20,563 bases of DNA. Origin: Thermoplasmata archaeon. Its GTDB lineage: Archaea > Thermoplasmatota > Thermoplasmata > SG8-5. The stretch's first letter is position 1. Each line of letters opens with the position of its first letter. Where the stretch lies: assembly GCA_030655715.1 (NCBI GenBank), contig JAUSPR010000257.1, positions 1 to 20,563 on the forward strand, read 5' to 3'. The notes beneath the pieces are model-generated. The model worked only from the letters and a program-made list of their open reading frames with translations. It did no database searches and was not told where the DNA came from. Positions 1-15,108 of this stretch are shown here, one piece after another. A program made the position numbers and the translations under genes.

Positions 1-3000
1 TGATCGACTAATTGAACGAATGGTTTTTGTTGTATCTCAGTTGCTTTTTTAATAGGCAACAAATTTAGTATTTCAATTTTAACTTGGGCAAAGACTTTAC
101 CTCCTTCAGCAGTAGTGTTTTTATAGTACCAATTAATAAGAGAACTATTTAAATTTGCAAGAATAAAAAATGGAGAGAATTCCTTATCGGTAATTGTAGT
201 CCCGTGCAAAGTATTTGAATAATAATATTCATTAATATCAAATGCACCAATTATCTTATCAGCTGTTTGCCTTGTTAAGATTTTATTTCTTTCAAAAATC
301 TCTTTTTTCCGTAATCTTAAACCACCACCACCTCTTTGAAGTTCAATTTTCATCATAGCATCAGGTTTATAATTTACCCAATTATTATTAAAATGAATAG
401 TATATCGATTCACATCTTTTCCAAATAAAAGTTTCTTTGAATCTTGATCAACTGGTTTCTTTAAAAATAGAACATCGGGAATTTTACTTTGAATGATTCC
501 ATCCCGTATGTCACTTATCTCTCCCAATTTTATTGATTGCTCTCTTATTTTTCTAGTTAGCATGAATCTTTTTGGATTATATCCTAAATCAAATTGCATA
601 TTTGGGCTCTCAATGAAAGAGGTTATTGGGACTAATTTACTTTTTCTTAAATTTAATTCATATGGTTCAATTTTGTTTTTTATATTTAGGTATTCATAAA
701 TTTTCATGTCATTTTTAAAAAACATGAGAATATTGTCTACAACTGCACTTTCAAATACTCCTTCTTTGAAAGAATCCATTTCTAATATAGTTTGTTGTTT
801 TAATAACCATGCTCTCAAATTAGAACATTGGGTATTTAATAACAATCTGTCAGGTACAATAAATGAAGATATGCCATATTTTCTGGTTAATCTTTTGCCT
901 GATAGTTCAATAAATAAATAAAATATATTGAATCTACCGTTAGTGAATTCATAGACGTTTTCGTATATCTTTTTATATTCTTGACTAATCTGCTTTATTT
1001 GGACATAAGGCGGATTCGCAATCACCACATCAAATCCAGGATTTTCTCTCTGGAACACCTCCGCGAAATTAAGTTTCCAGAGGAAAAATGGCTTAGCTCT
1101 GTTCTTTCTGTCAATTCGATTGATTGTTTCGAATTTTCCCTGTTCTCTCAGGGTGGTTTCAATGAGTTCCCACTCGATTCGGTCCATATTATCTCTGAGT
1201 GTTTTCTTTTTATTCCGGTCCTGTTCGTTGAAGAACCTGTTTTGGAGAGCGATATGTTGCTTTATCTTCTTCTCTGATTCCGCCTCTGAAATCGAAATTT
1301 GGTCTCCTTCTTTTTTAGTATCTGTGAAGATTCTTTCCTGTTTCAATTTTCGAATTTTCGCTTCAATATTCTTCTTTTCTTTTAAGTTTTTAATCAGAAC
1401 CAGTTGTTTTCTTAATTCCTCAATTTTTGCATCAAGTTCATTAATCTCATCCTGTTTGCTCCTTTTCTGTTTCCCTAACATCTTCTCATCGAACAGTTTG
1501 ACGCCCTCGAACTCTTCCAACAGGCTGTTACCACACATTATCTTGTAATCAAGATTGGGTAATGGCTGGATGTTTTCCTTCTTTTCCTCGTCCACAATCA
1601 GTGACAGCCAGAACCTCAGCTTGGCGATTTCAACAGCAGAAGGTTCTAAGTCTACTCCGTATAGGCTGTTCTCGATGCAATGTCTTTTCAGATTGTATTC
1701 AGTCCTTGCTTTACATTCCTCTAGTTTGAAATAATTCGTCAAAATTGACCTAGCCTTGACTATTTCATTCATCATGCCAACAGGGAACGCGCCCGAACCG
1801 ACCGCAGGGTCCACAACTTTAATGTCTCTCAATAAGTTATCCACAATCTGGTAATTGTCAACAATGGATTTGGGAATTAGGAATTTTTCCTCCACATAGC
1901 TTTTCCCATTGTAATTTTCTTTCTGGGCTAATGATTTTATTATCTGGTTCAGGGTGAGATCACCGTATTGGATGAATCTCTCGATGTCTTCCTTGGGAAC
2001 ATTTTCAGTATTGGTTTCCAGATAGTTAATAAGACTCTGCTGGCACATGTAATGGACAATTTCTCTGGGCGTGTAGAACGCGCCCTTGTCCTTACGGTCC
2101 TTGACATCAAGCAAATTCTCAAAAACCTTTCCCAGCATCTCTGGATCAACCGCGACCTCCTTTTCAAGAGGCTCATCTTCCTTGACTGTGAAATTGAACA
2201 AATCGAAGGTATCGAATATTTTCTTGATTATTTCATTCGGTATCTTGACGTCTGTGCCTGTCCAGTCATATTCATTAAGAGGCTCGAACAAACCGCCGTT
2301 CAAAAATGGAATTTTACATTTGAACGTGTCGAAATAATCATTGTCTGCACTCCTATCGTTCGCTAATGCTGAGTAGAACAAAGGCTCCAATCGGTCATTG
2401 AAAAAATTTTCGTAATTGGGGGCAATATCTTCATTGTATAGTTTTCTTAGAAAGTTTCTTGGTCCAGTTCCCCAATCTTCATACGTTCCATCTGGTCTTT
2501 TCTGAACACCGAGCCAGCCCTTCTTTTGAAGGAAGTAAATAAATACAATTTGACCGAGCAGTTTTTTGGAGAAATCGATGGTTTTGATACTTTTGCTATC
2601 GAATTCAGTTTTTATTCTGGAATTCGTTTCAACGATTTTATCGAGCGATTCCCTGAGGTCGATTGCCAGTTCCTTGTATTTCTCGAAGAACTCCTTCGTT
2701 ACCTTCTCGATACTGAATGCCTGTTCAATCTCTGCTATTGAGGGATTTGTTTTTTCTTCCCTGATTAATTCGAGGAACTGGCTCTGACACGTGTGATTGG
2801 GTTCATTAATGCCTACTAGAAATGAATAACGCTTGGCAGGTGTCAGTTCCTTGACGTTTTTAACCTTTCCATCTTCGTCCTTTATCAAGTTGTATTCCAT
2901 TTTTACGAAGGAGAATCTCCAGTCCTGGGGATCGTCTCCGTGGAACGCTACAAGAGCGGCTTCTGACATTTGATTGCCAAGCCAGCCAGATATAAAATTT

Positions 3001-3272
3001 CTCTGCATTGTTCGGGCTCTGTCGCGTGAACTGGTTTTCTTTAGTTTAACGCATAGGATTTCGATTGTACTTTTTTTCTTATCTCGATATTCTCCAATTT
3101 TCTTACATTCAGATATGTATTCCTTGAATTGACTAGCAACAGAGGCAGTTTTGTCTTGAATTACTATGTTGATATCGTTAAACAATTCTTTAATAAATAT
3201 TGAATATTGGTCGATATTAAAATCATTTCTGAAGGTATCTTCAAGCAACTTAACCGCTCTTGGTTTATCCAT
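1..3272 (-). CDS. Eco57I-type DNA adenine methylase / restriction-modification protein, partial (C-terminus beyond left edge)
   Basis: The frame is open from ATG 3272 to base 1, giving 1090 visible codons without a stop, so the C-terminus lies outside the window. The N-terminal part holds a basic segment (IEILCVKLKK, then SRDRARTMQR) of the sort seen ahead of Eco57I-like methylases, possibly a nuclease or helicase-contact region. GAFYTP is near residue 397. SAM-binding motif I, DPAVGSG, is at about 488-494, and catalytic motif IV, NPPY, at 753-756; together they mark an N6-adenine gamma-class methylase. A Lys/Glu-rich helical insertion separates motifs I and IV. The last visible part, ending LPIKKATEIQQ and PFVQLVD, resembles the C-terminal target-recognition region of this family. 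The ATG follows the helicase stop codon by 1 nt, so the two are probably translationally coupled. Inferred role: modification, with or without cleavage, in anti-phage defence. Type IIG self-contained restriction cannot be separated from a methylase-helicase system on this view. Confidence 0.88.
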   Translation of the reverse strand, partial: MDKPRAVKLLEDTFRNDFNIDQYSIFIKELFNDINIVIQDKTASVASQFKEYISECKKIGEYRDKKKSTIEILCVKLKKTSSRDRARTMQRNFISGWLGNQMSEAALVAFHGDDPQDWRFSFVKMEYNLIKDEDGKVKNVKELTPAKRYSFLVGINEPNHTCQSQFLELIREEKTNPSIAEIEQAFSIEKVTKEFFEKYKELAIDLRESLDKIVETNSRIKTEFDSKSIKTIDFSKKLLGQIVFIYFLQKKGWLGVQKRPDGTYEDWGTGPRNFLRKLYNEDIAPNYENFFNDRLEPLFYSALANDRSADNDYFDTFKCKIPFLNGGLFEPLNEYDWTGTDVKIPNEIIKKIFDTFDLFNFTVKEDEPLEKEVAVDPEMLGKVFENLLDVKDRKDKGAFYTPREIVHYMCQQSLINYLETNTENVPKEDIERFIQYGDLTLNQIIKSLAQKENYNGKSYVEEKFLIPKSIVDNYQIVDNLLRDIKVVDPAVGSGAFPVGMMNEIVKARSILTNYFKLEECKARTEYNLKRHCIENSLYGVDLEPSAVEIAKLRFWLSLIVDEEKKENIQPLPNLDYKIMCGNSLLEEFEGVKLFDEKMLGKQKRSKQDEINELDAKIEELRKQLVLIKNLKEKKNIEAKIRKLKQERIFTDTKKEGDQISISEAESEKKIKQHIALQNRFFNEQDRNKKKTLRDNMDRIEWELIETTLREQGKFETINRIDRKNRAKPFFLWKLNFAEVFQRENPGFDVVIANPPYVQIKQISQEYKKIYENVYEFTNGRFNIFYLFIELSGKRLTRKYGISSFIVPDRLLLNTQCSNLRAWLLKQQTILEMDSFKEGVFESAVVDNILMFFKNDMKIYEYLNIKNKIEPYELNLRKSKLVPITSFIESPNMQFDLGYNPKRFMLTRKIREQSIKLGEISDIRDGIIQSKIPDVLFLKKPVDQDSKKLLFGKDVNRYTIHFNNNWVNYKPDAMMKIELQRGGGGLRLRKKEIFERNKILTRQTADKIIGAFDINEYYYSNTLHGTTITDKEFSPFFILANLNSSLINWYYKNTTAEGGKVFAQVKIEILNLLPIKKATEIQQKPFVQLVD

Positions 3273-3273
3273 C

Positions 3274-6200
3274 TCACCCCACCTTCTTCAAATATTCTGA
3301 AAGAACCACTTCCTTCAGCCCAACTATATTGCCAGTGCTACCCGAAACTGTACCCTTGAATAAATTGGGGGATATACCTGCCTTGATTTTCGCGAATATT
3401 TTCAAGGGATTGATGTCATCCTTTGTGGCAATCTCAATCTTCTTCATGGTGGCCTTTGGTATTCCGCCATCCCGCAGCAAGTCCAGAACCTTCTGGAGAT
3501 ATTCCTCATCTTCATCGGTTAGTTCGGGTTTCTTGATTATGGCCTTTATCCTCTTTATCAACTTGGATTCATAGCTGGTGCCAACTGCCTTCGGTGCTGC
3601 AGCATCCTCTTCGAATATTGCATTGAACGCCTTCTTGTTGGCTTCCAGGTGGGTGTAGAAATCCGTTTCCAGCTTTGCCCTTTTGGTGTTCTTGGGTGTT
3701 TTCAGAGTTTCCGCTGCAGTGAAGAAATCCACTTCATCAACGTTTTCGTCACTGGTCATGAAAATCTTTCTCAGCTTTCCCTTTCTGAAGAATGTTATGA
3801 CCGATGTTGAATCAATATCGCAATCTCTTGCGGTCCTGGCCTTCTTGGGCAGCCTCTTGATTTTCTCGTACAGTTCCTGGTCTTTGTCTCTTATGCCTCT
3901 CAGATATGTTAGGTAAATAAGTTCCTGGTCAAGGTCGCCTTCTTCTCCAGTAAGAATTTCCTTGGAATTTAATTTCATGAACAAATCATGAGTCTTAATT
4001 TCTTCATCAGTAAGCAAAACTGCATCGTTGCCAAGCATTTCAATAAAGGCTTTAATTTTGGACTCCGCAGCTTCCCTCAATCCTATATTCTGGTTGATCG
4101 GCCCAGCAGGGAAGAAATTGTAAGTATAGATTTTATCGAATGGCGGGTCTTTGCTCACTCTGTTAACACGCCCGACCCTCTGCATCATGCGCACAGGATT
4201 CCAGGGAATGTCATAGTTAATCACTACATTCGACCGATGAAGGCTCACGCCTTCTGAAAGAATATCAGTGGAAACTAAAATTTTAATGTCATCCAGTTGT
4301 TTATCCTTTTTAGTATTTGCATCATAGTTGCGAATGATTCTGTGCCTTGTGGCTTCACCAGAATGACTTGAAAAGGCCAGCACCTTTTTATCAAACTTTG
4401 GATTCAGTTTCTCTTCGAGGTACATTGCCGTATCCTTAGATTCCGTGAACACGAGCAATTTGTGTTTCTTCAGAATTTTGTCATCAGTTAGAATCTCAAT
4501 AAATTTGTCCAGTTTGGGGTCCTGGTTGACCCTGCCCCACATATCTTGGATTTTTAATAATAACCTCAAATCATGCTCAAGGTCCTTGATGAACTCTGGT
4601 TTGAACTCATCAGCAAGGCGTTTTTCAGCCTCGTCACTTTCTATCATTTTCTGTATGGCATCAGTGTCATCATTCTCAAGCAATTCGAAAATCTTGTTGA
4701 TATTTTTCCTGGCAATGTAAACATTTCCCTTCTTGAACACCTCTATGAACCGCTGGTGAGAGTAAATGAACCTCTCAATCGACTGCTTGAATGCATAAAA
4801 GCTGCTTTCCAATCTCTTGACCAGCAAGATTTTCATGAAACGGCTCATGTTCCTTTGCGGCGTCTTTTCGTTCTCGGGAATTTCTTCCTTAAGATAGAGT
4901 AATGGCGTGTATCTGGAATACTTGAACTCTTTTATAATCAATTCAAGCGTTTTATTGAATATCTTGTCCAGGTCTTCATCGAAATTGTAAACAACAATTT
5001 CGGGCGTCATCACCTCTGGAAATTTCAGTTTCTCATCTTTTAAATCTTTGGTATAGTTTGCAGTGATATCGCCCCTGGTTCTTCTCACCATCAGGTATTT
5101 CAGAACATTTTCGCGTATGTCCTTGGCGTTGTCCTGGATAATTTGGAGATATTCGTCCTTATCCACCTGCCTATCTAGGCCTTTCAATTTCGCCTGGAGG
5201 GCTTTGAAATACTTATCCAGGTCCTTGACTCTTGGATTGGGGAGTGTTGACCTATGAGCGTTCTGGAATAATTTGATTTGGCTGAGTATATCCAGCGGGG
5301 TATTATTGAGCGGTGTCGCTGAAACAAGAATCACTCTTTTTCCTCTGCATATCTCGAACAATTTTTCATACATCTGGGTTGATTCGGTTCTGAACCTGTG
5401 GGCCTCATCAATGATTACATTGTCATATTTCTCTATACCCTGCAGCAGTAACTTATCCAGCTTTCCCAGGGATTCGAACCTGGACGACCTGACACCGAAA
5501 TCCCTGAACACAATAGGCCATGAACCGGGATTATCCTCAGAGATTAAAAACGGGGGCGCAATTACGAGCGTCTTACCGTCCAACTGTTGCACCAGCATGG
5601 CAGAAACATAGGTTTTACCCAAACCCACCACATCAGATAAAAATACACCGCCATATTCTGCAAGCTTCTGCTTTGCATCCGTGACAGCATCCTTCTGGTA
5701 ACCTAAATCCATGAAGTTTTCCGGGAAGTTTTCCTTGTGCAGTTCTTCCTGGTCCAGATTAATTTTATCTTTCAGATATTCGTAAAGGAACTTGATGTAA
5801 AGTTCGAACGGCGTTATATCACTGTTAATCCAGGTATTTTGATTGACAGTTTCTACATACTTTTCTGATACATCCACAGCGTTTTCCCAAAGCTCGTTGA
5901 ATTTAGCCAGTGAGAACTCATAATCCGACCTGTTTTTTAGTTCAACATTGAATTCAATATTCGTCCGCAATCCAGCTTGTGTAAAATTACTGGAGCCTGT
6001 GATAACTCGTCCAGCATCCATTTGGTCTTCCTTGAAGGTCATTATGTAAACTTTGGCATGTATTTTCTCTGAAGGATACACTCTGATTTCTAGCTTCCCG
6101 GATTTTATCCATTCAATGAATTTATGAATTCCCTCTTCTACAATAGGAGAATCTCTTGATCCTTCCATCTCAGATATTATCTGGGACGAAAACATATCCT

Positions 6201-6333
6201 TTGTTTCCTTAGTTGAATGATATATTTTCTCTTGAGTGACTTTTGATTCTTCCAGTAAATCATAGGTTGTTTTGTCTGTGCTAATACCTATTAAAATACG
6301 AATTTTTTCAGTATCCTCAAGAGATTTATACAT
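3274..6333 (-). CDS. PLD-nuclease/SNF2-like superfamily 2 helicase, N-terminally truncated by an upstream in-frame TAG
   Basis: Counting from ATG 6333 (1019 residues), an incomplete phospholipase-D-type HKD domain comes first: H92-x-K94 in IHAKVY, then GSSN at 113-116. Next is a superfamily 2 helicase with Walker A DVVGLGKT (234-241), DEAH (309-312) and SAT (338-340). The C-terminal helicase lobe has STDILSEG and QRVGRVNRV. A long charged C-terminal region follows. Reading upstream in the same frame restores 44 further residues, including YFYASGFYAM, which fits the usual start of this family, but a TAG at 6391-6393 interrupts it. ATG 6333 has no visible ribosome binding site, while ATG 6465 has a good one. 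The gene may therefore be a recent pseudogene, may be read through, or may carry a sequencing error. It is paired with the Eco57I-type methylase, which suggests a DNA-translocating or DNA-cutting partner in phage defence. Confidence 0.85.
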   Translation of the reverse strand: MYKSLEDTEKIRILIGISTDKTTYDLLEESKVTQEKIYHSTKETKDMFSSQIISEMEGSRDSPIVEEGIHKFIEWIKSGKLEIRVYPSEKIHAKVYIMTFKEDQMDAGRVITGSSNFTQAGLRTNIEFNVELKNRSDYEFSLAKFNELWENAVDVSEKYVETVNQNTWINSDITPFELYIKFLYEYLKDKINLDQEELHKENFPENFMDLGYQKDAVTDAKQKLAEYGGVFLSDVVGLGKTYVSAMLVQQLDGKTLVIAPPFLISEDNPGSWPIVFRDFGVRSSRFESLGKLDKLLLQGIEKYDNVIIDEAHRFRTESTQMYEKLFEICRGKRVILVSATPLNNTPLDILSQIKLFQNAHRSTLPNPRVKDLDKYFKALQAKLKGLDRQVDKDEYLQIIQDNAKDIRENVLKYLMVRRTRGDITANYTKDLKDEKLKFPEVMTPEIVVYNFDEDLDKIFNKTLELIIKEFKYSRYTPLLYLKEEIPENEKTPQRNMSRFMKILLVKRLESSFYAFKQSIERFIYSHQRFIEVFKKGNVYIARKNINKIFELLENDDTDAIQKMIESDEAEKRLADEFKPEFIKDLEHDLRLLLKIQDMWGRVNQDPKLDKFIEILTDDKILKKHKLLVFTESKDTAMYLEEKLNPKFDKKVLAFSSHSGEATRHRIIRNYDANTKKDKQLDDIKILVSTDILSEGVSLHRSNVVINYDIPWNPVRMMQRVGRVNRVSKDPPFDKIYTYNFFPAGPINQNIGLREAAESKIKAFIEMLGNDAVLLTDEEIKTHDLFMKLNSKEILTGEEGDLDQELIYLTYLRGIRDKDQELYEKIKRLPKKARTARDCDIDSTSVITFFRKGKLRKIFMTSDENVDEVDFFTAAETLKTPKNTKRAKLETDFYTHLEANKKAFNAIFEEDAAAPKAVGTSYESKLIKRIKAIIKKPELTDEDEEYLQKVLDLLRDGGIPKATMKKIEIATKDDINPLKIFAKIKAGISPNLFKGTVSGSTGNIVGLKEVVLSEYLKKVG

Positions 6334-6465
6334 TGCGTAAAAACCACTGGCATAGAAATATCCTACAAGGCAGTCAAAATTACGAGTACACTAAATCAGT
6401 GTTGAAAACCTGTTTTCTAGGCTCTGCCCTTTCTCGTTGGTAATGAATGTAAGGTCTGTGGACAT
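6334..6465 (-). pseudogene. Detached N-terminus of the PLD-helicase gene (24 codons, then TAG, then 19 codons)
   Basis: ATG 6465 is preceded by a good Shine-Dalgarno sequence (taggagagcttaat). Its frame encodes MSTDLTFITNEKGQSLENRF and STLI, then TAG at codon 25, then CTRNFDCLVGYFYASGFYA, running straight into the downstream helicase ORF at codon 45. The peptide on both sides fits the N-terminal strand of PLD-helicase proteins, where I would expect roughly LIKDT at the TAG. A Lys codon to TAG needs one base change. This is seen directly in the sequence; the family comparison is from memory. Confidence 0.75.
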
Positions 6466-6540
6466 ATTAAGCTCTCCTACTCAGAAGGGGGTATTATTTA
6501 GACATTAATAAAATTGTGTAAGTTATTTATGTTAAAAAAA
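6466..6540 (-). promoter_or_regulatory. Promoter and ribosome binding site of the helicase-methylase operon
   Basis: On the minus strand this AT-rich stretch contains TATA-like sequences (cataaataactta near 6520-6535 and ctaaataatacc near 6485-6495) followed by taggagagcttaat directly before ATG 6465. The ribosome binding site decides the ancestral start at 6465 rather than 6333. Which TATA box is used cannot be told. Confidence 0.45.
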
Positions 6541-6792
6541 ACGGACATGGCATTTGAGTGCATAACGCCCAGGTTGGAGAGAGATTGCCCCGCCCAAGTG
6601 GGGAAGAGTTGATTGGGATTGGAATTGCCCACGTAACAAAGATATGCTTCCCGAAAGGCATAATAGCTTGGTCGGAGATATAGATTTGGGTAGGAATGAA
6701 TGAGAACTGCCAGGGCGAAGCGGAATTTCGTGTAATAGGAGTTAAATGAAATCGGTGGCAAGGGATAATGATAATGCCTAAAGGTGATAGAT
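6541..6792. other. Non-coding spacer with hairpins and a copy of a dispersed element
   Basis: I see no convincing gene here. The 87-codon minus-strand ORF crossing it looks spurious. The stretch holds a cccc/gggg hairpin at 6588-6603 within a repeated element and a small hairpin at about 6640-6660 (tatgc...gcata). The start of the next gene, with its ribosome binding site, lies at the right end. Confidence 0.5.
6577..6614. repeat. Dispersed repeat copy 1 (hairpin plus conserved flank)
   Basis: The 19-nt string aagtggggaagagttgatt (6596-6614) is identical to 20246-20264. The preceding bases, ggagagagattgccccgccc, are close to those before copy 2. The cccc...gggg arms form a short hairpin. Its function is unknown. 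Confidence 0.6.
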
Positions 6793-7170
6793 ATGTCTCG
6801 GTGGAAAATCAGTAAAGGTCAAGCGATAGACCTACAAGATTGGGCATTGAAAGTGAGTGGAACAAAGAAATTTTTAGACACTCTACCCGAACTTCCCCCA
6901 AAGGAAAAAATAAAACCTGGACTCTATGTAAGTTACGAAATCGATGAATCAGAGCTTGATGGCGGTATAGATTGGCCAGATATAGGTGCTGCTTGGGTAT
7001 ATGCAATACTTCAAAACGGAAAAAAGGAATATGTAGGTGAGGTTCGGGCTTACAACTGGGAAGCTATTTGGCTTTGCACAAATGAATTTGATGAAGTAGA
7101 TTCCGTCACGGAGTGGTGGAAGTACATTAAAAAGGATTACGAAAAACTCAAAAAAGGCGACACGAAATGA
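6793..7170 (+). CDS. Hypothetical Trp-rich small protein (125 aa)
   Basis: I do not recognise the family. ATG 6793 is chosen over GTG 6784 because aaggtgat sits about 5 nt before it. The product is soluble, without a signal peptide or membrane segment. It has eight tryptophans, an acidic middle (DESELDGGIDWPD) and a lysine-rich end. The middle reads like a small beta-rich domain (GLYVSYEID, then AAWVYAILQNG and YVGEVRAYNW), but no catalytic motif is visible. It is the first gene of a short plus-strand accessory patch and is followed within about 70 nt by an integron attC-like site, so it has the layout of a gene cassette. No close upstream promoter is obvious. Confidence 0.65.
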   Translation: MSRWKISKGQAIDLQDWALKVSGTKKFLDTLPELPPKEKIKPGLYVSYEIDESELDGGIDWPDIGAAWVYAILQNGKKEYVGEVRAYNWEAIWLCTNEFDEVDSVTEWWKYIKKDYEKLKKGDTK

Positions 7171-7194
7171 TGACTATCGGAATCGCATAATTGC

Positions 7195-7226
7195 CCCCGA
7201 CTCTCGCCAACTTCGTCGGCTCGGGG
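7195..7226 (+). repeat. Stem-loop upstream of the attC-like site
   Basis: The arms ccccga (7195-7200) and tcgggg (7221-7226) enclose a second stem, gcc...ggc. It lies directly between the 125-aa gene and the attC-like site and could act as a transcription end or belong to the recombination structure. Confidence 0.5.
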
Positions 7227-7237
7227 TTAACACCCTC

Positions 7238-7317
7238 ACTTAACAGTGGACATACGGTTACGGTGCTTCGCACCTCCGCCAAAATGCTCGGCTTCGCATG
7301 TCCCCAGACCGTTAGGC
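7238..7317 (+). mobile_element. Integron attC-like recombination site
   Basis: The 80-nt site starts with acttaac (7238-7244), which fits the attC R'' consensus RYYYAAC, and ends with gttaggc (7311-7317), which fits R' GTTRRRY. Inside them ggacat (7248-7253) pairs with atgtcc (7297-7302), giving imperfect long-range complementarity with unpaired bases, as attC sites have. The centre carries a perfect hairpin, ggtgcttcgcacc, as a variable terminal structure. No integron integrase is in the window, so this would be a lone site or part of an integrase-less cassette cluster. Alternative: an unrelated structured repeat. Confidence 0.5.
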
Positions 7318-7369
7318 GCAATCATAAATGAAGAGCATTTGGCGGTCTAGAAAAAATGAAATATAATGA

Positions 7370-7909
7370 GTGAGATGCGGCAGCATGACCAAGAATAACG
7401 GTAGCGGTCAGAAACCAAGAGCGAAGTCAAATAAATCTGTGAAAGGTTCGGACAAGGTCTATACGCTGGCTGTTTATGTGATTGGGGGGCCTGTGGCGAA
7501 GGAATTTGATGAAAAAGAAATATCCCGCACAATCCAGATCAGGGGGACTCAGACCTTAGAAAACCTTCATTGCGCCATATTCTGCGCTTTTGACCGTTGG
7601 GAAGAACACCTTTATGAGTTCATTTTGGGTAAAGGACCGGATGATCGCTCTGCAATCTATTCATCTCACGCATATTTGGCGGATTGGGGGTATGGAGACG
7701 AAGAGATGGGCGATGTTGCCGATACCGCAATTGATTCCTTAGGATTAAAAGTAGATCGCGCCTTCGGTTACAGGTTTGATTTTGGAGATGAATGGGTACA
7801 TCAGATCAATGTGGTTGCAATCAATGAAGAAGCGGGAGAGGGAAAATATCCAAAAATAATCAAACGGGTTGGAAAAAGCCCTCCGCAATATCCAGACATT
7901 GAAGAATAG
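7370..7909 (+). CDS. pRiA4b ORF-3-like domain protein
   Basis: The product is 179 aa from ATG 7370, or 174 aa from ATG 7385; neither has a strong ribosome binding site, so the start is uncertain. After a basic, low-complexity first 30 residues come segments typical of the plasmid pRiA4b ORF-3 family (also called IS1096 TnpR-like): a beta-strand start YTLAVYVIGG, TLENLHCAIFCAFDRW, HLYEFIL, the signature GYRFDFGDEWVHQI and a final VGKSPPQYPD. The biochemical role of this family is not established; members are often found on plasmids and mobile elements. It ends with TAG overlapping the ribosome binding site of the next gene, 10 nt before its ATG, so the two are co-transcribed. Its position just after an attC-like site suggests a cassette-borne gene. 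Confidence 0.8.
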   Translation: MRCGSMTKNNGSGQKPRAKSNKSVKGSDKVYTLAVYVIGGPVAKEFDEKEISRTIQIRGTQTLENLHCAIFCAFDRWEEHLYEFILGKGPDDRSAIYSSHAYLADWGYGDEEMGDVADTAIDSLGLKVDRAFGYRFDFGDEWVHQINVVAINEEAGEGKYPKIIKRVGKSPPQYPDIEE

Positions 7910-8867: not shown

Positions 8868-10265
8868 TCAGCGCGTGCTGTTTTCCTTTATCGTCACGAT
8901 GATGGCTTTCGGGTCCCCTTCGCTGTTCCGAATTACCGAGGCACTCAGTTCGGTCAGGAAGCTTGAGCCGTCTTTTCTCAACGATTTGTATTTTGCATCT
9001 ATTACCGTATCCTCACATAGAATTCTGTTCTTAAATTTCGTAGCCTTTCTGTAATCTTCGGGTGTAACAAAGTCAAAAATATTTTTCCCCAGGATTTTTT
9101 TCTCGTTTGAGTATCCATACATTTCAAGCGCCCGTTGCGACGAATATAAAATTTTTCCTTCGAGGTCGGCCATAATCACAGCCTCAGGCAGGATGCTCAC
9201 GAGCGTATCGAACATTATCTTCGATTCGTGTAAATCTTCATGAATTTTCTTTTGATGAGATAGGTCTTCAACGGTACCGCAATAGAACACAATATTACCT
9301 TTATCATCCCGGACTGCCGTGGCGTTTTCACGAACGTGAAGAATGGAACCATCCTTCTTGGTCCAAGATGTTTCATGCCCGGCGACCTGTCCTTTACGTT
9401 CTACACGTTTCTTGAAGTCAGAACGTGAAACGCTCTCGGCAAATCCCTCCTTCTCCAGGTTTCGTTTGGAGAGTTCTATAAAAGATGAGAATCCCAACAT
9501 ACGGACGAGCGCCGGGTTTGCCAGGAGAATTTGTCCCTCGGGAGTGGTCTGGTAAATACCGATTAACGTGTTCTTGAAAAGCTCTTTGAATCTTTCTTCC
9601 GAACTTCGTAATGCCCTTTCTGCTTTTTTCTGGTCGGTGATGTCCTGGGCGAGTATGGAGAATCCGATTATCGAACCTTCCGTATCCCTGATTGGATCTA
9701 TTCTAGCATTTATATCAAATATTTCTCCAGACTTGTGTTTGGCAACAGTGTCGAAGGCAGCGGATTTCTTACCCCGCATGGCAGTTTTTACTATGCCCTC
9801 CAAGGACTTGGAATAAAGAAAAATCTGGATGCTTTTTCCCATCACTTCCGTTACTTTGTAACCGAAAAGCTCTTCGGCAGCGGCATTCCAGAAGAAGGTC
9901 TCTCCATCTTTATCTATTAGGATGACGGCAATTTTCGTCTGTTCTATGACGTTTTGGAAGAAAGTGAATGAAGAGGTAATGTTTGTTTTCTTAATCAAAT
10001 CCTCGAAAAGATTGAAATTTTCCTCAAGCAGAGGAGACAAGAAAAACACCTCCCCGTAACCGCTGCTTTTTGAAGAGATAACAAAACCATTTCTCAAGAG
10101 GGTATCCATGTGATGTTTCACTGTTCTGTAATTTAAGTTCATAATCTCTGCAAGCTGGTTGATATTGTATGGCCGTTCCTTAATCAGTTCAATGATCTGT
10201 ATTCTTTTCGGCCCACCCTTTTGCCCTATGAGCACATGTGAAAATGTCTGTTTCAATGTAAGCAT
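8868..10265 (-). CDS. One-component regulator: N-terminal helix-turn-helix plus three PAS domains
   Basis: Start ATG 10265 (465 aa) is preferred to 10379. It has aggaaag about 10 nt upstream and a TATA-like palindrome at 10301-10316, which would place transcription start between the two candidates. Residues 1-80 form a winged helix-turn-helix (RIQIIELIKERP, then YNINQLAEIMNLNYRTVKHH and LLRNGFV). PAS1 spans about 105-215 (VILIDKDGETFFWNAAAEEL), PAS2 about 225-345 (GIYQTTPEGQILLANPALVR) and PAS3 about 349-465 (VIMADLEGKILYSSQRALEM). There is no histidine-kinase or other output domain after the PAS domains, so DNA binding is the likely output. It is transcribed away from the PHA operon and shares its intergenic region, which makes it a candidate regulator of that operon. 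The ligand or cofactor is unknown. Confidence 0.87.
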   Translation of the reverse strand: MLTLKQTFSHVLIGQKGGPKRIQIIELIKERPYNINQLAEIMNLNYRTVKHHMDTLLRNGFVISSKSSGYGEVFFLSPLLEENFNLFEDLIKKTNITSSFTFFQNVIEQTKIAVILIDKDGETFFWNAAAEELFGYKVTEVMGKSIQIFLYSKSLEGIVKTAMRGKKSAAFDTVAKHKSGEIFDINARIDPIRDTEGSIIGFSILAQDITDQKKAERALRSSEERFKELFKNTLIGIYQTTPEGQILLANPALVRMLGFSSFIELSKRNLEKEGFAESVSRSDFKKRVERKGQVAGHETSWTKKDGSILHVRENATAVRDDKGNIVFYCGTVEDLSHQKKIHEDLHESKIMFDTLVSILPEAVIMADLEGKILYSSQRALEMYGYSNEKKILGKNIFDFVTPEDYRKATKFKNRILCEDTVIDAKYKSLRKDGSSFLTELSASVIRNSEGDPKAIIVTIKENSTR

Positions 10266-10300
10266 AGTTACCGCTTTCCTAAAATCCCCCGTCTGAATGC

Positions 10301-10316
10301 CATATATTAATATATG
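10301..10316 (-). promoter_or_regulatory. Perfect 16-bp palindrome containing the TATA box of the PAS regulator
   Basis: The sequence catatattaatatatg is its own reverse complement. On the minus strand it lies about 35 nt ahead of ATG 10265, at the right distance for an archaeal TATA box with a short leader. Its symmetry also makes it a possible operator for autoregulation. Confidence 0.5.
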
Positions 10317-10419
10317 ATTGTCAATGTATAAATTAATTTCGGTTAAATAGATTTGCTGTGCTCGTACATTATAAGCCATACATTATGAAACCATAGAAAA
10401 GTACATATACGTTAACATT

Positions 10420-10502: not shown

Positions 10503-11096
10503 ATGGTAAAGAAGAAAGTCAATGAAAAGTCTAGGACTGACGAAAAGTGCAATGAAGAGAAAAAAAACGCTTCTGGGGAGAACATGGAGGACATTATGAA
10601 AATCTGGATGGAACAGCAACTAGACATGTTCAATCAAATGAACAAAGCGATTGATGCCCAGCAGAAACAATATATGGATATTGGAAAAAATTGGGCAACA
10701 TTCAATGCCAGCGTACATGAGAATGTCAGCAAGGACATTGGCGACAATGACTACCGAGAGTTGGCCAACCTCTGGAAAGAGCAATACGCCAAAATCAATA
10801 CAAATCTTCTGGAAACCACGCGGAAGAACATCAACCAGTATGCGGAACTATTCGACAAGTGGAGTGTTTTCACCGATATTATGAATAAAGTAGCCAGTTC
10901 ACGAGGGGAGGAACAGAAGAAGCACCTTCAGAACCTTGCTAAAAAGTACGAGGATTTACCCAAGTACACCGCAGACCTCTTCGAGAAGGATAATGCTGCC
11001 ATGGCGCGCGAATACAATTCAATCGAATCCACCTGGATGGAATTCACCAAGAAGATGAATGAAATTCTGGCGAAGCAAGCGACCAACGAAAATTAA
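10503..11096 (+). CDS. Phasin/PhaE-like helical protein with Y-x6-W repeats (197 aa)
   Basis: First gene of the PHA operon, with a strong ribosome binding site (ggagg, 7 nt). The first 25 residues are charged and probably disordered. The rest is predicted helical, without membrane segments or signal peptide. Tryptophans fall at 35, 64, 91, 120 and 178, spaced 29, 27, 29 and 58 residues. Four of them are preceded exactly seven residues earlier by Tyr (Y57-W64, Y84-W91, Y113-W120, Y171-W178). This gives a ~29-residue repeat shared with the next gene. Amphipathic helical proteins next to phaC usually coat the polymer granule or act as the PhaE partner. The phasin role here rests on context and composition, as no named phasin signature is visible. 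Spacing to the next gene is 20 nt. Confidence 0.7.
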   Translation: MVKKKVNEKSRTDEKCNEEKKNASGENMEDIMKIWMEQQLDMFNQMNKAIDAQQKQYMDIGKNWATFNASVHENVSKDIGDNDYRELANLWKEQYAKINTNLLETTRKNINQYAELFDKWSVFTDIMNKVASSRGEEQKKHLQNLAKKYEDLPKYTADLFEKDNAAMAREYNSIESTWMEFTKKMNEILAKQATNEN

Positions 11097-11116
11097 CATA
11101 AAGGCAGGAGATAACA

Positions 11117-11989
11117 ATGAACGAAACAAATCAATCTTTCAATGACGTTTGGAACGAATTGCAAAAGAATATTGCGAATCAGATACAGATGGGCATCAAG
11201 AACGTAACGAAACAATACGAAGATATCTCAACAAAATGGCTGGCGGAATCCGAACCCGTCAATAAACTTATGACAGATATACTCAGCGAGAACAAGGAAC
11301 CCTACCTGGAAATCTACAATGTCTGGAAAAACTACCAGAATAAAATAAATGCCAGGATGATTAAAATATTGGATGGGGGAAACGCCCCATATATCGCGTT
11401 GGAGAAAATGTGGACCAAGCATGCGGAAACCGTCATCACCGCGCTTGGTTCCAAGAGCAATGGAGGCAATGAATATATTTACACCTCCTGGTCCGAGCTT
11501 ACCTCGACAATGATGCAACTGGTAAGCGATTACATATCGGAAAGCAGGGTAGAGTACCAGGCATTGAACGACATCGTATCCGAGCTGAAAGAAAAGATGG
11601 ACTCAACCATTTCGAATATGGATAGCAACCTACCCCACCTAGGAGCCATTGAAAGAAGCTTGCGGGAAATGTATTCCAATTTAGAAGATGAGCGGAATGC
11701 CAATTATGGAGATGTCTCCCGAAACGCGATATGGGAGTTCCAGAAAAGCTGGTTCCAGACCATGGAAACAGTAAGGAAATCGCTCATGGGTATGGGACCC
11801 CAAACAGATTATGAGAAACTTTACGCTAGCTTTTTCGACACTTCCAGGTGGACTCCCTTCAGCGCGTTCACGACTTCAACTAGCACATCAAGCCTAGAGG
11901 ATGAGGTTACCCAACTTAGGACTCAGGTAAGCGAGTTAGAAAAGAAACTCAAGAAGAAAAATAATAAATCTGAAGGAGGGCAGATTTGA
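11117..11989 (+). CDS. PhaE/phasin-like protein with Y-x6-W repeats and C-terminal coiled coil (290 aa)
   Basis: ATG 11117 follows ggag by 6 nt. Tryptophans at 12, 41, 70, 99 and 125 keep a 29-residue period (last step 26). Tyrosines at 34, 63 and 92 each lie seven residues ahead of the Trp, in contexts such as EPYLEIYNVW and APYIALEKMW. After about residue 145 the protein is helical (VSELKEKMDSTISNM). A segment, SFFDTSRWTPFSAFTTS, leads into a coiled coil, SLEDEVTQLRTQVSELEKKL. That order, a PFSAF-like segment followed by a terminal coiled coil, resembles PhaE, the non-catalytic subunit of class III PHA synthase. PhaE itself or a granule-associated phasin are both possible. Its stop overlaps the next start by 1 nt (TGATG). 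Confidence 0.7.
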   Translation: MNETNQSFNDVWNELQKNIANQIQMGIKNVTKQYEDISTKWLAESEPVNKLMTDILSENKEPYLEIYNVWKNYQNKINARMIKILDGGNAPYIALEKMWTKHAETVITALGSKSNGGNEYIYTSWSELTSTMMQLVSDYISESRVEYQALNDIVSELKEKMDSTISNMDSNLPHLGAIERSLREMYSNLEDERNANYGDVSRNAIWEFQKSWFQTMETVRKSLMGMGPQTDYEKLYASFFDTSRWTPFSAFTTSTSTSSLEDEVTQLRTQVSELEKKLKKKNNKSEGGQI

Positions 11990-12504
11990 TGACAGAAGAT
12001 TGTTCTAAAGAAAACGACAAGGTAGAGGATTTCATCGAAGTGATGCGAAAGTACCAGGAGGAATTAATCAAGAATTGGACTGAAGCAGTCAAATACACTT
12101 CCCCTGTAAGCACGGTGGACTCTCCGGAATTCGCAAACATCATGAAAAAGTACTGGGAAAAAGTGAACATGGAAGTTGCCGAGGCGATGCCGCAAATTGC
12201 AAAAGGAGATGATGGCTCGCTCCAGAAGCAGAAGGATTTGTTCGTTTCCGCCATGCATGCCTACTCAGACATGCTGAAGGAGTTCCTTGTTTCCCCGGCA
12301 TTCCTCGCTTATCTAAAGCAATCCTATAAAGATAATACCGATATGAAAATCCGGCTGGACAAGGTAAATGAGGAGAACCTCAAACTCTGTGGCGTTATTA
12401 CACGGAAAGACCTGGATGATATTAATTTCAATTTATATAACCTTAATAAAAAGCTGGACCGCCTACAGGACTCGATATCAGAACTCAAGGGAGGGAAAAG
12501 ATGA
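11989..12504 (+). CDS. Small PhaE-like subunit of class III PHA synthase (171 aa)
   Basis: ATG 11989 shares its A with the preceding TGA stop and follows ggaggg (11975-11980) by 8 nt, which decides it over the TTG at 11986. The protein is helical and soluble. Its N-terminal half has aromatic-rich helices (FIEVMRKYQEELIKNW, FANIMKKYWEKVN) that echo the repeats of the two upstream proteins. The C-terminal end, VITRKDLDDINFNLYNLNKK then LDRLQDSISEL, matches the pattern at the end of PhaE proteins, where a (P/I)TR-D/E motif leads into a short coiled coil. PhaE binds PhaC and activates it. The gene overlaps phaC by four bases (ATGA), typical of a stoichiometric partner. Whether this or the 290-aa protein is the true PhaE is open. 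Confidence 0.7.
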   Translation: MTEDCSKENDKVEDFIEVMRKYQEELIKNWTEAVKYTSPVSTVDSPEFANIMKKYWEKVNMEVAEAMPQIAKGDDGSLQKQKDLFVSAMHAYSDMLKEFLVSPAFLAYLKQSYKDNTDMKIRLDKVNEENLKLCGVITRKDLDDINFNLYNLNKKLDRLQDSISELKGGKR

Positions 12505-13559
12505 ACGAGACCTTCATGAAGGAAATAATACAGGGTAATCTCAAGCTGGCCAAGGCATTTGAGATCATAGTCAATGGAACACAGATGGACAGCGAGGCTA
12601 CGGAATATGATGTCGTTTTTGAACACAACAAAATGCGCCTCCTCAGATTCAAGCCGTTGGTCAAGAAAGAATTCCACCCGCCACTTCTCATGGTGTATGC
12701 GGTCATCAACAGACCGTATATTCTCGACCTCCAGCAAGATAGAAGTGTGGTCAAAAAATTCCTTGAGAAAGGATTCGATGTCTATCTCATAGATTGGGGA
12801 ACGCCTTCCGACGCTGACAAGTACACCTGTTTGGACGACTACATAAATTACTATATGCGATACGCTGTAGACCACATTTGTAAAGAAAATACCTGCACAC
12901 AAATCTCGCTGTTAGGATATTGCATCGGCGGGTACTTTGCATCGATATTCAGCTCCCTCTATCCAAAGAGAGTGAAGAACCTCATGATCATGTCCGCACC
13001 AATCGACTTCCATGTCAAGGGCGGTCCCCTGCACGTCTGGACACAAAAAGATATATTTGATGTGTCAAGATTCACTGAGGCGTACGGCAACTGCACACCC
13101 GATATCCTCAACAATGGATTTATGCTCCTGAACCCTATGGAGAACACATACCTGAAGTATCTGGACCTCGTAGAAAAAGTGGATAATAAAGATTACGTGG
13201 ACAATTTCTTCAGGATGGAGAAATGGATAAACGATGGCATCTCGATACCTGCCAGGTTCTTCGTGGAGTGGATTAGGGACGGATACCAGGAAAACAAGTT
13301 GGTAAAGGGCGAGCTCAAGGTGGCTGGAAAGCCAGTCAACTTGAATAAAATTACAATGCCGCTTCTTCTGATTGTAGGAAAAGTCGACAATCTTGTGCCA
13401 CCCGCCTCGACTCTTGGCTTATTATCCCACGTGAAGAGCAAGGATACGAAAGTCTTCGAGAACCCCTCGGGACACATCGGAGTCTCCGTTGGTGGAAAGG
13501 CCCACAGGGTCATGTGGCCTGAAGTAATCAAGTGGCTTGCCAAACACTCTGAGAAGTGA
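12501..13559 (+). CDS. phaC: Class III polyhydroxyalkanoate synthase catalytic subunit PhaC
   Basis: The enzyme polymerises (R)-3-hydroxyacyl-CoA into polyester with release of CoA, at the surface of PHA granules. The 352-aa length fits class III PhaC. It has an alpha/beta-hydrolase fold with the lipase-like box GYCIGG at 139-144, giving nucleophile C141. The other triad members are D296 in VGKVDNLVPP and H325 in PSGHIG. These match C149/D302/H331 of the Allochromatium enzyme with nearly the same spacing. The segment FDVYLIDWGTP is also typical. The start overlaps the PhaE-like stop by four bases and has gggaggga upstream. Hydratase and reductase genes follow in the same operon. Substrate is probably short-chain, as for the family, but this is not visible in the sequence. 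Confidence 0.95.
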   Translation: MNETFMKEIIQGNLKLAKAFEIIVNGTQMDSEATEYDVVFEHNKMRLLRFKPLVKKEFHPPLLMVYAVINRPYILDLQQDRSVVKKFLEKGFDVYLIDWGTPSDADKYTCLDDYINYYMRYAVDHICKENTCTQISLLGYCIGGYFASIFSSLYPKRVKNLMIMSAPIDFHVKGGPLHVWTQKDIFDVSRFTEAYGNCTPDILNNGFMLLNPMENTYLKYLDLVEKVDNKDYVDNFFRMEKWINDGISIPARFFVEWIRDGYQENKLVKGELKVAGKPVNLNKITMPLLLIVGKVDNLVPPASTLGLLSHVKSKDTKVFENPSGHIGVSVGGKAHRVMWPEVIKWLAKHSEK

Positions 13560-13563
13560 TTTT

Positions 13564-14349
13564 ATGAATGAATACAACAACATCCTGTTAAATATCAAGG
13601 GGTCGGTCGCCACGGTCAGACTCAACCGACCGCAAACCCGCAACGTTCACAACCACGACACGCTCGTAGAACTCGAAAACGCTTTCCAGAAAATTGCCAA
13701 GGATGATAACATCAGCGTCGTCGTCTGGAGAAGCAACAGCATGAAGCTATTCACGGCCGGTGCGGACATCAGGGAGATGCGCGAAAAGAGTGTGCTCGAA
13801 GCGATTGAGTTTGCGAGGTTGGGGCACAAGGTGGGTCATACAATTGAGCGTGACCTCCCCCCAGTTATCGCTGTTCTCAATGGATTCGTTTTTGGAGGTG
13901 GGGTGGAACTTTCCTGTGCCTGCGACCTCCGCATCGCAACTCCGGATGCTATTTTTGCCCAACCGGAAATCGACATAGGGATAATCCCTGGCTGGGGCGG
14001 AACACAGAGATTATGTCGAATAGTGGGTCTAGGCAAAGCCAAAGAAATGATATACACCGGAAAGCACATAACCGCAGAGGAAGCGCTGTCCATTGGGCTC
14101 GTGAACATGATTGTACCGCATGAGCAATTGGAACTTGCCATATTGCACCTCACTGGAATTCTTAGTGCGAAGAGCAGGCCAGCTCTTATCTCAGCAAAAA
14201 GGGCAATAGCCATGGCCTTGGAAACACCGCTCAATGCTGGTCTGGCTTACGAAATTCAGGCATGGGGCGCGCTCTTCGATACATACGACGTAAAAGAAGC
14301 AATGAACGCATTTTTAGAGAAAAGAGAGCCTAAATATAAAAACAAGTAG
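13564..14349 (+). CDS. Enoyl-CoA hydratase/isomerase (crotonase family)
   Basis: ATG 13564, 4 nt after the phaC stop, is preferred to the in-frame ATG 13537 inside phaC. This gives 261 aa, normal for crotonases. Both catalytic glutamates of active hydratases are present: E115 in GGGVELSCACDL and E135 in AQPEIDIGIIPGWGGTQR. The oxyanion-hole segments FTAGADIREM (63-72) and the G112 region are also present. The C-terminal FLEKREPKY is typical. Its reaction would be hydration of trans-2-enoyl-CoA (such as crotonyl-CoA) to 3-hydroxyacyl-CoA, or the reverse. Crotonase-fold enzymes normally make the (S) isomer, while PhaC needs (R), so it does not obviously feed the polymerase directly. It may serve a neighbouring crotonyl-CoA/butyryl-CoA or fatty-acid route. 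It ends in TAG. Confidence 0.9.
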   Translation: MNEYNNILLNIKGSVATVRLNRPQTRNVHNHDTLVELENAFQKIAKDDNISVVVWRSNSMKLFTAGADIREMREKSVLEAIEFARLGHKVGHTIERDLPPVIAVLNGFVFGGGVELSCACDLRIATPDAIFAQPEIDIGIIPGWGGTQRLCRIVGLGKAKEMIYTGKHITAEEALSIGLVNMIVPHEQLELAILHLTGILSAKSRPALISAKRAIAMALETPLNAGLAYEIQAWGALFDTYDVKEAMNAFLEKREPKYKNK

Positions 14350-14361
14350 AGGTGATTAAAC

Positions 14362-15108
14362 ATGGGATTATTGGACGGAAGAAAGGCCCTAGTCACGGGG
14401 GCTAGCAGAGGAATCGGGAGAGAGGTAGCCAAAGGGCTAGCGAAGGAAGGGGCGGATGTCGTGGTCAACTTCAACAAGAGCGAGCAGAAGGCTGACGATA
14501 TTGCGAGAGAGATTGAGAAGTTCGGCAGAAACACATGGGTATATCCGGCAAGTACGAGCAATATCGAGGAAGTACGGAAGATGAAAACTGCCATCGAGAA
14601 GAACTTCGGGAAGATAGATATCCTGGTAAACAATGCAGGCATAAATATCGACAGACTCTTTGTGAAGATGAACGAGGCGGAATGGCAGCAGGTAATCGAT
14701 GTGAACCTGACTGGCTATTTTAACTGCTCCAAGGTCTTTCTCGATAACATCACCGCATCGAAGTACGGACGAATCATCAACATCGCATCGGTAGTGGGTC
14801 AGATGGGGAACATCGGGCAGGTAAACTACGCCGCTGCGAAAGCGGGAGTGATTGGCATGACAAAAGCCCTGGCCAGAGAAATGGCAAGGAGCAAGGTTAC
14901 AGTCAACGCAATCGCACCTGGATTCACGCGGACAGACATGGTGGAGGGAATCCCTGAAGAGGTAAAAGAGAAGATCCTCAAGGGCATACCACTTGGTCGG
15001 TTCGGCGAACCTGAGGAAGTCGCTTACGCTTGTGTGTATCTCGCCTCGGACAAGGCGGCCTACATCACGGGCCATGTCCTAGATATCAACGGCGGCATGT
15101 ACATGTAA
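14362..15108 (+). CDS. Short-chain dehydrogenase, probable acetoacetyl-CoA reductase (PhaB/FabG type)
   Basis: The 248-aa protein has the classic SDR layout: cofactor motif TGASRGIG (12-19), NNAG (90-93), N115, and the catalytic S143, Y156 and K160 in the NYAAAK segment. The C-terminal end, ASDKAAYITGHVLDINGGMY, is typical of FabG and PhaB. In the PHA pathway such an enzyme reduces acetoacetyl-CoA to (R)-3-hydroxybutyryl-CoA, the PhaC monomer. Archaea generally lack fatty-acid synthase type II as a main lipid route, and the operon context favours PhaB over FabG. Ribosome binding site aggtgatt lies just ahead of ATG 14362, 12 nt after the hydratase stop. It is the last gene of the operon; a hairpin follows within 5 nt. 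Cofactor choice (NADPH or NADH) cannot be settled. Confidence 0.9.
   Translation: MGLLDGRKALVTGASRGIGREVAKGLAKEGADVVVNFNKSEQKADDIAREIEKFGRNTWVYPASTSNIEEVRKMKTAIEKNFGKIDILVNNAGINIDRLFVKMNEAEWQQVIDVNLTGYFNCSKVFLDNITASKYGRIINIASVVGQMGNIGQVNYAAAKAGVIGMTKALAREMARSKVTVNAIAPGFTRTDMVEGIPEEVKEKILKGIPLGRFGEPEEVAYACVYLASDKAAYITGHVLDINGGMYM

What the first reader, a model, noticed from the sequence alone, without database searches (positions are those of the whole stretch)
10503..12504. A regular ~29-residue Y-x6-W repeat shared by the phasin-like proteins of an archaeal PHA operon
In the 197-aa protein Trp falls at 35, 64, 91, 120 and 178; in the 290-aa protein at 12, 41, 70, 99 and 125. The step is 29 (27-29, with one double step and one of 26). 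In seven of these a Tyr precedes by exactly seven residues, so Tyr and Trp lie on one face of a helix. The small PhaE-like protein has a looser version (F48-Y55-W56). This looks like an undescribed repeat for coating polyester granules or for assembling PhaC, grown by internal duplication and then spread across neighbouring genes.
Basis: seen in the sequence. Interest (0 to 1): 0.72.

Follow-up and report, generated by a model that had tools for sequence, protein, structure and literature searches.

The report
Tryptophan-repeat proteins in archaeal polyester operon
Next to the bioplastic-making enzyme of an uncultured archaeon lie two unnamed helical proteins built from a 29-residue tryptophan repeat that also forms the front part of the enzyme's known helper subunit (PhaE) in other archaea, which suggests that the granule's accessory proteins and the enzyme's helper share one origin.

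Summary
The 197-aa protein (A197) and the 290-aa protein (B290) carry tryptophans on a 29-residue grid. The repeat exists apart from its tryptophans: in-phase units score -0.003 BLOSUM62 per residue, against -0.53 at the best other phase. A repeat profile built without window units finds A197 (E 2.4e-12) and B290 (E 1e-9), with 0 of 1590 shuffled decoys at E<=0.01. Trp is mostly kept in distant relatives; Tyr(-7) is common but looser.

The two proteins are paralogues aligned in register (E 2e-10). They belong to an unnamed Thermoplasmata family found mainly in genomes with phaC. The same array precedes the PhaE domain in some Thermoplasmata PhaE and in haloarchaeal PhaE, where Trp steps are often 29-27-29, as in A197. 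Units match best at the same position in different proteins, so the array predates the gene duplications. The third protein is PhaE-like and has largely lost the array.

Best reading: PhaE-related, phasin-like helical-bundle proteins. Granule coating versus synthase scaffolding is undecided.

The parts
10503..11096 (+). A197: array protein with six grid positions (W35, W64, W91, W120, Y149, W178; codons start at 10605, 10692, 10773, 10860, 10947, 11034)
   Evidence: repeat profile built without window units E 2.4e-12; profile match to the B290 family E 2e-10 with controls
11117..11989 (+). B290: array protein with eight grid positions (W12, W41, W70, W99, W125, V154, 183, W212; codons start at 11150, 11237, 11324, 11411, 11489, 11576, 11663, 11750), then a conserved DYEKLYASFFD stretch and a C-terminal coiled coil
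   Evidence: profile match to the Thermoplasmata family A7 E 1.9e-30
11810..11968 (+). C-terminal tail of B290 (residues 232-284): DYxxLYxxFFD-like motif and short coiled coil, shared by the family
   Evidence: alignments; predicted helix 260-284 (low pLDDT around it)
11989..12504 (+). E172 (171 aa from the ATG at 11989; 172 from the TTG at 11986): short PhaE-like subunit whose array is largely lost
   Evidence: PF09712 E 3.2e-5 but 23.8 bits, under the 25.7 cut-off; profile match to haloarchaeal PhaE E 1.8e-12 and to Thermoplasmata PhaE E 9.2e-19 (controls)
12501..13559 (+). PhaC, class III PHA synthase, 352 aa, with GYCIGG box (Cys141) and candidate Asp296 and His325
   Evidence: TIGR01836 376.1 bits over cut-off 365.3; residues; start overlaps the E172 stop (ATGA)
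13564..14349 (+). enoyl-CoA hydratase/isomerase-like gene of the operon (ATG; the ORF listing starts it at a TTG at 13537)
   Evidence: PF00378 E 3e-58
14362..15108 (+). short-chain dehydrogenase, PhaB/FabG-like
   Evidence: PF13561 E 2.6e-65

Best explanation
A197 and B290 are paralogous, predicted all-helical proteins of an undescribed archaeal family. They are built from six and eight copies of a 29-residue unit (Y-x2-L-[YF]-x2-W-x-[DE]-[FY]-S-x-[KR]-M-G-x2-[ILM]), and the same array forms the N-terminal part of archaeal class III PhaE. Shown here: the repeat, its conservation, its tie to phaC, and the homology chain A197 - B290 - family - Thermoplasmata PhaE - haloarchaeal PhaE. Inferred: each unit is about eight turns of amphipathic helix, and two units make one long helix of a bundle. 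The Tyr/Leu/Trp/Phe/Met/Ile face packs inside the bundle or against PhaE, and is offered to the nascent polyester so that the proteins coat the granule around PhaC as phasins do. They share an ancestor with PhaE: one gene kept the PhaE end (E172) and the others the array.
For: Repeat: 61 W pairs at distance 29 in 18 proteins left after clustering at 45% identity, against 3.8 +/- 1.9 in shuffles (13 of the 18 were first noticed for two or more Y-7 pairs, so selection is not excluded); in-phase unit score -0.003 against -0.53 or lower at the other 28 shifts. Window proteins found by a profile without them. Homology: A1-A2 E 2e-10, A1-A7 1.7e-30, A7-A6 3.5e-17, A6-A4 1.1e-15, each far stronger than its reversed and 20 column-shuffled controls. 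In 45 of 74 PhaC loci a candidate ORF ending at phaC has Trp steps 29-27-29, as in A197; shuffles give 0.002. PhaE with the array: six phaC-adjacent proteins over the PF09712 cut-off, all hit by the repeat profile with four or more units. Whole haloarchaeal genomes searched with the B290 family gave one hit each in 3 of 6, inside PhaE (places compared with the contig ranges). Tie to phaC: a B290 search hits 15 of 250 genomes of the class, 13 of them among the 23 with a strong PhaC match. Helical model: B290 pLDDT 74.9, helices 3-58, 60-111, 117-166. Start/stop overlaps at B290-E172 and E172-PhaC.
Against: A197 against haloarchaeal PhaE directly is not significant (E 0.02-0.03); the link runs through intermediates and the shared Trp steps. 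B290's family against haloarchaeal PhaE is only marginal (E 7e-4). Autocorrelation alone is not significant for A197 or haloarchaeal PhaE. The family profile found nothing in 3 of 6 haloarchaea. 10 of the 23 strong-PhaC genomes gave no B290 match, G001 among them with phaC at a contig end. The A197 model is poor (pLDDT 60.8). A review says that in Haloarcula PhaC but not PhaE stays stably on granules (PMC7137286, passages), which argues against the array being a strong granule binder. The array also occurs away from phaC in the same genome (G000:C138), and G202 has an array protein but no PhaC match. No phasin Pfam family matches A197 or B290 at E<=1.
Confidence: 0.6

Rival explanations
1. Extra synthase subunits rather than coat: the arrays dock PhaE and PhaC to each other and activate or oligomerise the synthase, without touching the polymer.
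For: The array sits in PhaE itself, which the literature calls indispensable for PHBV synthesis in Hfx. mediterranei (PMC2939530, passages); PhaE was not stably granule-bound in Haloarcula (PMC7137286, passages). Overlapping start/stop codons couple B290, E172 and PhaC.
Against: Array genes can outnumber phaE (G009 has four array ORFs before its PhaE-position gene), more than a one-to-one subunit would need; no tool here tests binding.
Confidence: 0.3
2. The arrays link granules to something else (chromosome, membrane, each other), as a spacer of defined length; polymer binding lies in another part such as the B290 tail.
For: Regular length unit; conserved non-array tail in B290 relatives; a second array gene pair away from phaC.
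Against: The repeated face is hydrophobic and aromatic, unlike a passive spacer; no DNA-binding or membrane family over its cut-off.
Confidence: 0.08
3. Nothing special: generic amphipathic helices or coiled coils in which Trp spacing is coincidence.
For: Unit similarity also rises at helix-like shifts 3, 4, 7, 11 (-0.53 to -0.63); weak matches of B290 to many coiled-coil families; a designed helical repeat protein is the one PDB sequence match of A1 at E<=0.001 (9e-5).
Against: In-phase score far higher even with W-W pairs left out; reversed and shuffled profile controls fail; Trp largely conserved at 17-30% identity; the same 29-27-29 steps in haloarchaeal PhaE.
Confidence: 0.02

Closest known systems
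Haloarchaeal PhaE (class III PHA synthase subunit, about 180 aa; matches the end of PF09712)
   Same: Immediately upstream of phaC; Trp steps commonly 29-27-29, identical to A197; the only genome-wide hit of the B290 family profile in 3 of 6 haloarchaea
   Different: Carries the PhaE C-terminal region after the array; A197 and B290 have no PF09712 match. Direct profile match with A197 not significant
Thermoplasmata PhaE with array (PF09712 over cut-off, e.g. L047:4369-5193, L132:7317-8150)
   Same: Four to seven units of the same repeat by profile in the six proteins tested
   Different: Array and PhaE end in one protein; in the window they are in separate proteins
Bacterial phasins (Pfam PF05597, PF09361, PF09602 and others; which Pfam entries are phasins is partly recalled)
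   Same: Helical amphipathic proteins of PHA granules; working model of helices opening on the polymer (PMC5658603, passages)
   Different: No phasin Pfam match for A197/B290 at E<=1; no Trp repeat mentioned in the passages read ('tryptophan' occurs 0 times in that review)
Haloarchaeal PhaP
   Same: Small helical-looking protein gene just before phaE in the cluster (order maoC-phaR-phaP-phaE-phaC, PMC7137286, passages)
   Different: In the six ORFs at that place that I checked, Trp number 0 to 3 and steps are 37, 42 or 44, never 29
Apolipophorin III (PF07464)
   Same: Weak matches of relatives (best 28.2 bits against a cut-off of 36.3; P0007 bears the label); works-like analogy of a helix bundle opening on a hydrophobic surface (recalled)
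   Different: Insect lipid carrier (recalled); under the cut-off; not among the matches of A197 or B290

Membership tests
Class III PhaE (PF09712, TIGR01834), for E172 | Curated profile score | tested here: not met
   23.8 bits against 25.7 (PF09712) and 19.6 against 154.95 (TIGR01834). So it is called PhaE-like, not filed as PhaE
Class III PhaE (PF09712, TIGR01834), for E172 | Homology to PhaE and place directly upstream of phaC | tested here: met
   A5-A4 E 1.8e-12, A5-A6 E 9.2e-19; reversed controls 0.021 and 0.32, best of 10 shuffles 0.066 and 0.026; ATGA overlap with phaC
Class III PhaE (PF09712, TIGR01834), for E172 | 'PhaE box' | not tested
   The motif was not given in the passages read; reported missing in Hfx. 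mediterranei PhaE (PMC2939530) and, among haloarchaea, present only in Haloarcula and Halorhabdus utahensis (PMC7137286)
Class III PhaE, for A197 and B290 | PF09712 match | tested here: not met
   No PF09712 hit at E<=1. They are called paralogues of PhaE through the array only
Class III PhaE, for A197 and B290 | Needed for PhaC activity | not testable with these tools
   experiment
Phasin | Match to a phasin family profile | tested here: not met
   none for A197 or B290 at E<=1; relatives reach only E 0.0049-0.033 with PF09361, under its cut-off
Phasin | Binds the PHA granule surface | not testable with these tools
   experiment
Phasin | Encoded with PHA synthase | tested here: met
   operon with class III PhaC, hydratase and reductase; association across the class
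29-residue Trp-array family (proposed here) | Three or more units by profile, with Trp on the 29 grid | tested here: met
   A197 four and B290 three units over 3 bits with a profile built without them

The most novel reading that the evidence does not exclude
A 29-residue Trp repeat is the ancestral building block of archaeal class III PhaE, and the archaeal PHA granule coat evolved from this synthase subunit by gene duplication and array growth. That would be a phasin kind independent of the known phasin families, and it would supply a hallmark for haloarchaeal PhaE, which mostly lacks the bacterial PhaE box.
Probability: 0.5. Interest if true: 0.68.

Novelty: new variant of a known kind. Interest (0 to 1): 0.55.

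Why it matters
Haloarchaeal PhaE is needed for PHA synthesis, but the bacterial PhaE box is mostly missing from it (PMC2939530 and PMC7137286, passages), so how it works is open. A conserved Trp array common to PhaE and to unnamed neighbour proteins gives specific residues to mutate in a genetically tractable host, Haloferax. It also gives a profile for finding PHA accessory proteins in uncultured archaea that are now called hypothetical, and a modular repeat that might serve as a polyester-binding tag.

Full report
WHAT IS THERE. The stretch 10503-12504 holds three same-strand genes directly before a class III PHA synthase gene (12501-13559; TIGR01836 376.1 bits over the cut-off of 365.3; GYCIGG box with Cys141, candidate Asp296 and His325). 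An enoyl-CoA hydratase-like and a PhaB/FabG-like gene follow. B290/E172 and E172/PhaC overlap by start and stop codons. The genome (G000, 1.73 Mb in 287 contigs) is of Thermoplasmata: contigs of two same-genus genomes have the lengths and matches of records named Euryarchaeota archaeon S2_100 and Methanomassiliicoccales archaeon UBA147 (lineage), and B290's closest database relative is from a Candidatus Thermoplasmatota archaeon.

THE OBSERVATION. The Trp and Tyr positions given for A197 and B290 are right. Over both proteins together, the shared W-W lag was matched at a rate of 5e-5 in 20,000 shuffles and the shared Tyr offset in none. Taken singly, the best W-W lag of A197 is not striking (0.10), nor B290's best Tyr offset (0.09).

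IT IS A TRUE REPEAT. Relatives in 20 fetched regions show runs of W at exactly 29, for example 29-29-29-29. From 124 units the consensus is Y(-7) L(-4) Y/F(-3) W(0) D/E(+2) F/Y(+3) S(+4) K/R(+6) M(+7) G(+8) I/L/M(+11). The units were picked for a W with another W at 29, so W itself is not evidence there; the other columns are. A profile of 117 units with the window's own units left out found A197 (E 2.4e-12) and B290 (E 1e-9). It hit 63 of 1590 ORFs at E<=0.01, the proteins that gave the units included, against 0 of 1590 shuffled decoys; without duplicates these are 54 of 1522 distinct ORFs. In 18 proteins left after clustering there are 61 W pairs at 29 (shuffles 3.8 +/- 1.9, maximum 11), 25 at 58 and 21 at 87; without the window's two they are 56, 22 and 18. 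Thirteen of the 18 were first noticed for having two or more Tyr-7 pairs, so this count is not free of selection. Within single proteins (8 family members), units compared in phase score -0.003 per residue with W-W pairs left out; the best other phase gives -0.53, at shifts of 3 to 4, as expected of an amphipathic helix. Profile autocorrelation peaks at 29 for A6 and A7 (0 of 1000 permutations); lags 58, 87 and 29 lead for A1 (p 0.007 for 29). It is not significant for A2 (0.164) or A4 (0.709).

CONSERVATION. In 18 aligned sequences (B290 and 17 relatives at 17-91% identity), Trp is present in 18 of 18 at grid positions 12, 41, 70 and 212, 17 of 18 at 125, 14 of 18 at 99 and 11 of 18 at 154; at 183 the four commonest residues are not Trp. 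Tyr at -7 is looser: 9 to 14 of 18 at the first four units. Among five A197 sequences the five Trp are kept in all, but the G002 copy in L125 lacks Trp 120.

WHO ELSE HAS IT. B290's alignment matches that of a wider Thermoplasmata family (A7) end to end (274 columns, E 1.9e-30). A197 and B290 match each other over 157 columns with their first four Trp in register (E 2.3e-10). Six phaC-adjacent proteins from other Thermoplasmata pass the PF09712 (PhaE) cut-off, mostly with their C-terminal parts, and carry four to seven repeat units. This set (A6) matches both the array family (E 2e-17) and 16 haloarchaeal PhaE (A4; E 3.4e-17). In one search these four links fell to E 6.5e-4 or worse when one side was reversed, and to 0.02 or worse in 20 column shuffles each. 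Links that failed or are marginal: A197 with haloarchaeal PhaE directly (E 0.028, no better than controls); B290 with haloarchaeal PhaE (E 7e-4; controls 0.055 or worse). Of 269 PhaC relatives the best 80 loci were kept; 74 have a candidate ORF ending at phaC, and in 45 of the 74 its Trp steps are 29-27-29, exactly those of A197 (shuffles 0.002 on average). Most of these are haloarchaea, many closely related, so the 45 are not independent. Searching whole genomes with the 18-row family profile gave hits in 11 of 24 genomes; of 6 haloarchaea, 3 gave one hit each, lying in the front part of PhaE when the contig ranges are applied, and 3 gave none. Four family-12 genomes with no match in that search have phaC-adjacent proteins with steps 29-27-29 then 26 or 30; the repeat profile scores these weakly (E 0.0009 to 0.07).

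TIE TO PHA SYNTHESIS. In 250 genomes of the class, B290 found matches in 15, and PhaC in 24, of which 23 are strong; I take the two draws to be the same, since the handles agree. Thirteen of the 15 are among the 23; 10 of the 23 gave no B290 match. The two exceptions are G237 (weak, E 9.7e-4; the repeat profile finds nothing there) and G202, whose protein is a genuine array protein near a contig end with masked stretches behind it. A search of 292 genomes of the phylum with A7 hit only G000 and G032, both with phaC; phaC was not searched in all 292. The window's genome also has a second pair of array genes on another contig (G000:C138), mirrored in G002:C12, with no phaC-like box in the ORFs listed there.

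THE THIRD GENE. E172 falls just short of the PF09712 cut-off but matches haloarchaeal PhaE (E 1.8e-12) and array-bearing Thermoplasmata PhaE (E 9.2e-19) by profile, with reversed and shuffled controls at 0.02 or worse. So the window has a short PhaE-like protein plus two array proteins where some other lineages have both in one protein.

EVOLUTION. In eight family members, units at the same position in different proteins score 0.94 per residue, units at different positions -0.01, and units within one protein 0.008 (shuffled -0.76). A197 and B290 units agree on the diagonal 35/12, 64/41, 91/70, 178/154, each the best of its row; units 120 and 149 do not. The internal duplications are therefore old and were followed by duplication of whole genes.

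HOW IT MAY WORK. Predicted B290 (10 sequences; pLDDT 74.9, pTM 0.63) has helices 3-58, 60-111 and 117-166, two grid positions each; the A197 model is poor. The unit is amphipathic (moment 0.40 per residue at 100 degrees), with its hydrophobic positions on one face. The best inference is a bundle whose aromatic face packs in solution and meets the polyester or PhaE/PhaC at the granule. For phasins such opening has been proposed (PMC5658603, passages). That PhaE was reported not to stay on granules in Haloarcula (PMC7137286, passages) keeps the scaffold rival alive.

NOVELTY. None of the 39 relatives listed shows a functional name (names shown, where any, are 'hypothetical protein' or cut off), and only P0007 bears a Pfam label, PF07464. 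Ten paper searches listed nothing that describes the repeat; the lists were capped and subscription papers are mostly not held. I class it as a new variant of a known kind: PhaE- and phasin-like accessory proteins with an undescribed repeat architecture.

Noticed in passing
window 8868-10379 (-): A divergently transcribed winged-helix plus three-PAS regulator lies just upstream of the PHA operon. An ORF with a like start lies at the same place before the array genes in G009 (L127:1622-3064, by eye), a candidate PHA regulator of these archaea.
   Followed up: partly
L124 (G000:C138) 1553-3330: Second pair of array genes in the window's own genome, away from phaC, with a like pair in G002:C12 (L126:6489-8284). 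The first has Trp at 19, 48, 77, 164, 193, 222, all on one exact grid of 29.
   Followed up: partly
L179, L180, L182, L184: Four genomes of one family carry two phaC-like ORFs in tandem behind the array-bearing gene at the PhaE position.
   Followed up: no
L127 (G009:C54) 3545-7652: Four array genes in a row before the PhaE-position gene and phaC, the longest run that I saw.
   Followed up: partly
window 3274-6333 (-): 1019-aa ORF that by eye looks like a phospholipase-D-like domain fused to a helicase, perhaps a defence gene; no search was run.
   Followed up: no
L120 (Methanoperedenaceae) 646-2267: Two neighbouring ORFs both match PF09712, the longer one with the front and middle of the profile, and both have weak repeat units: a possible intermediate between array proteins and PhaE.
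   Followed up: partly
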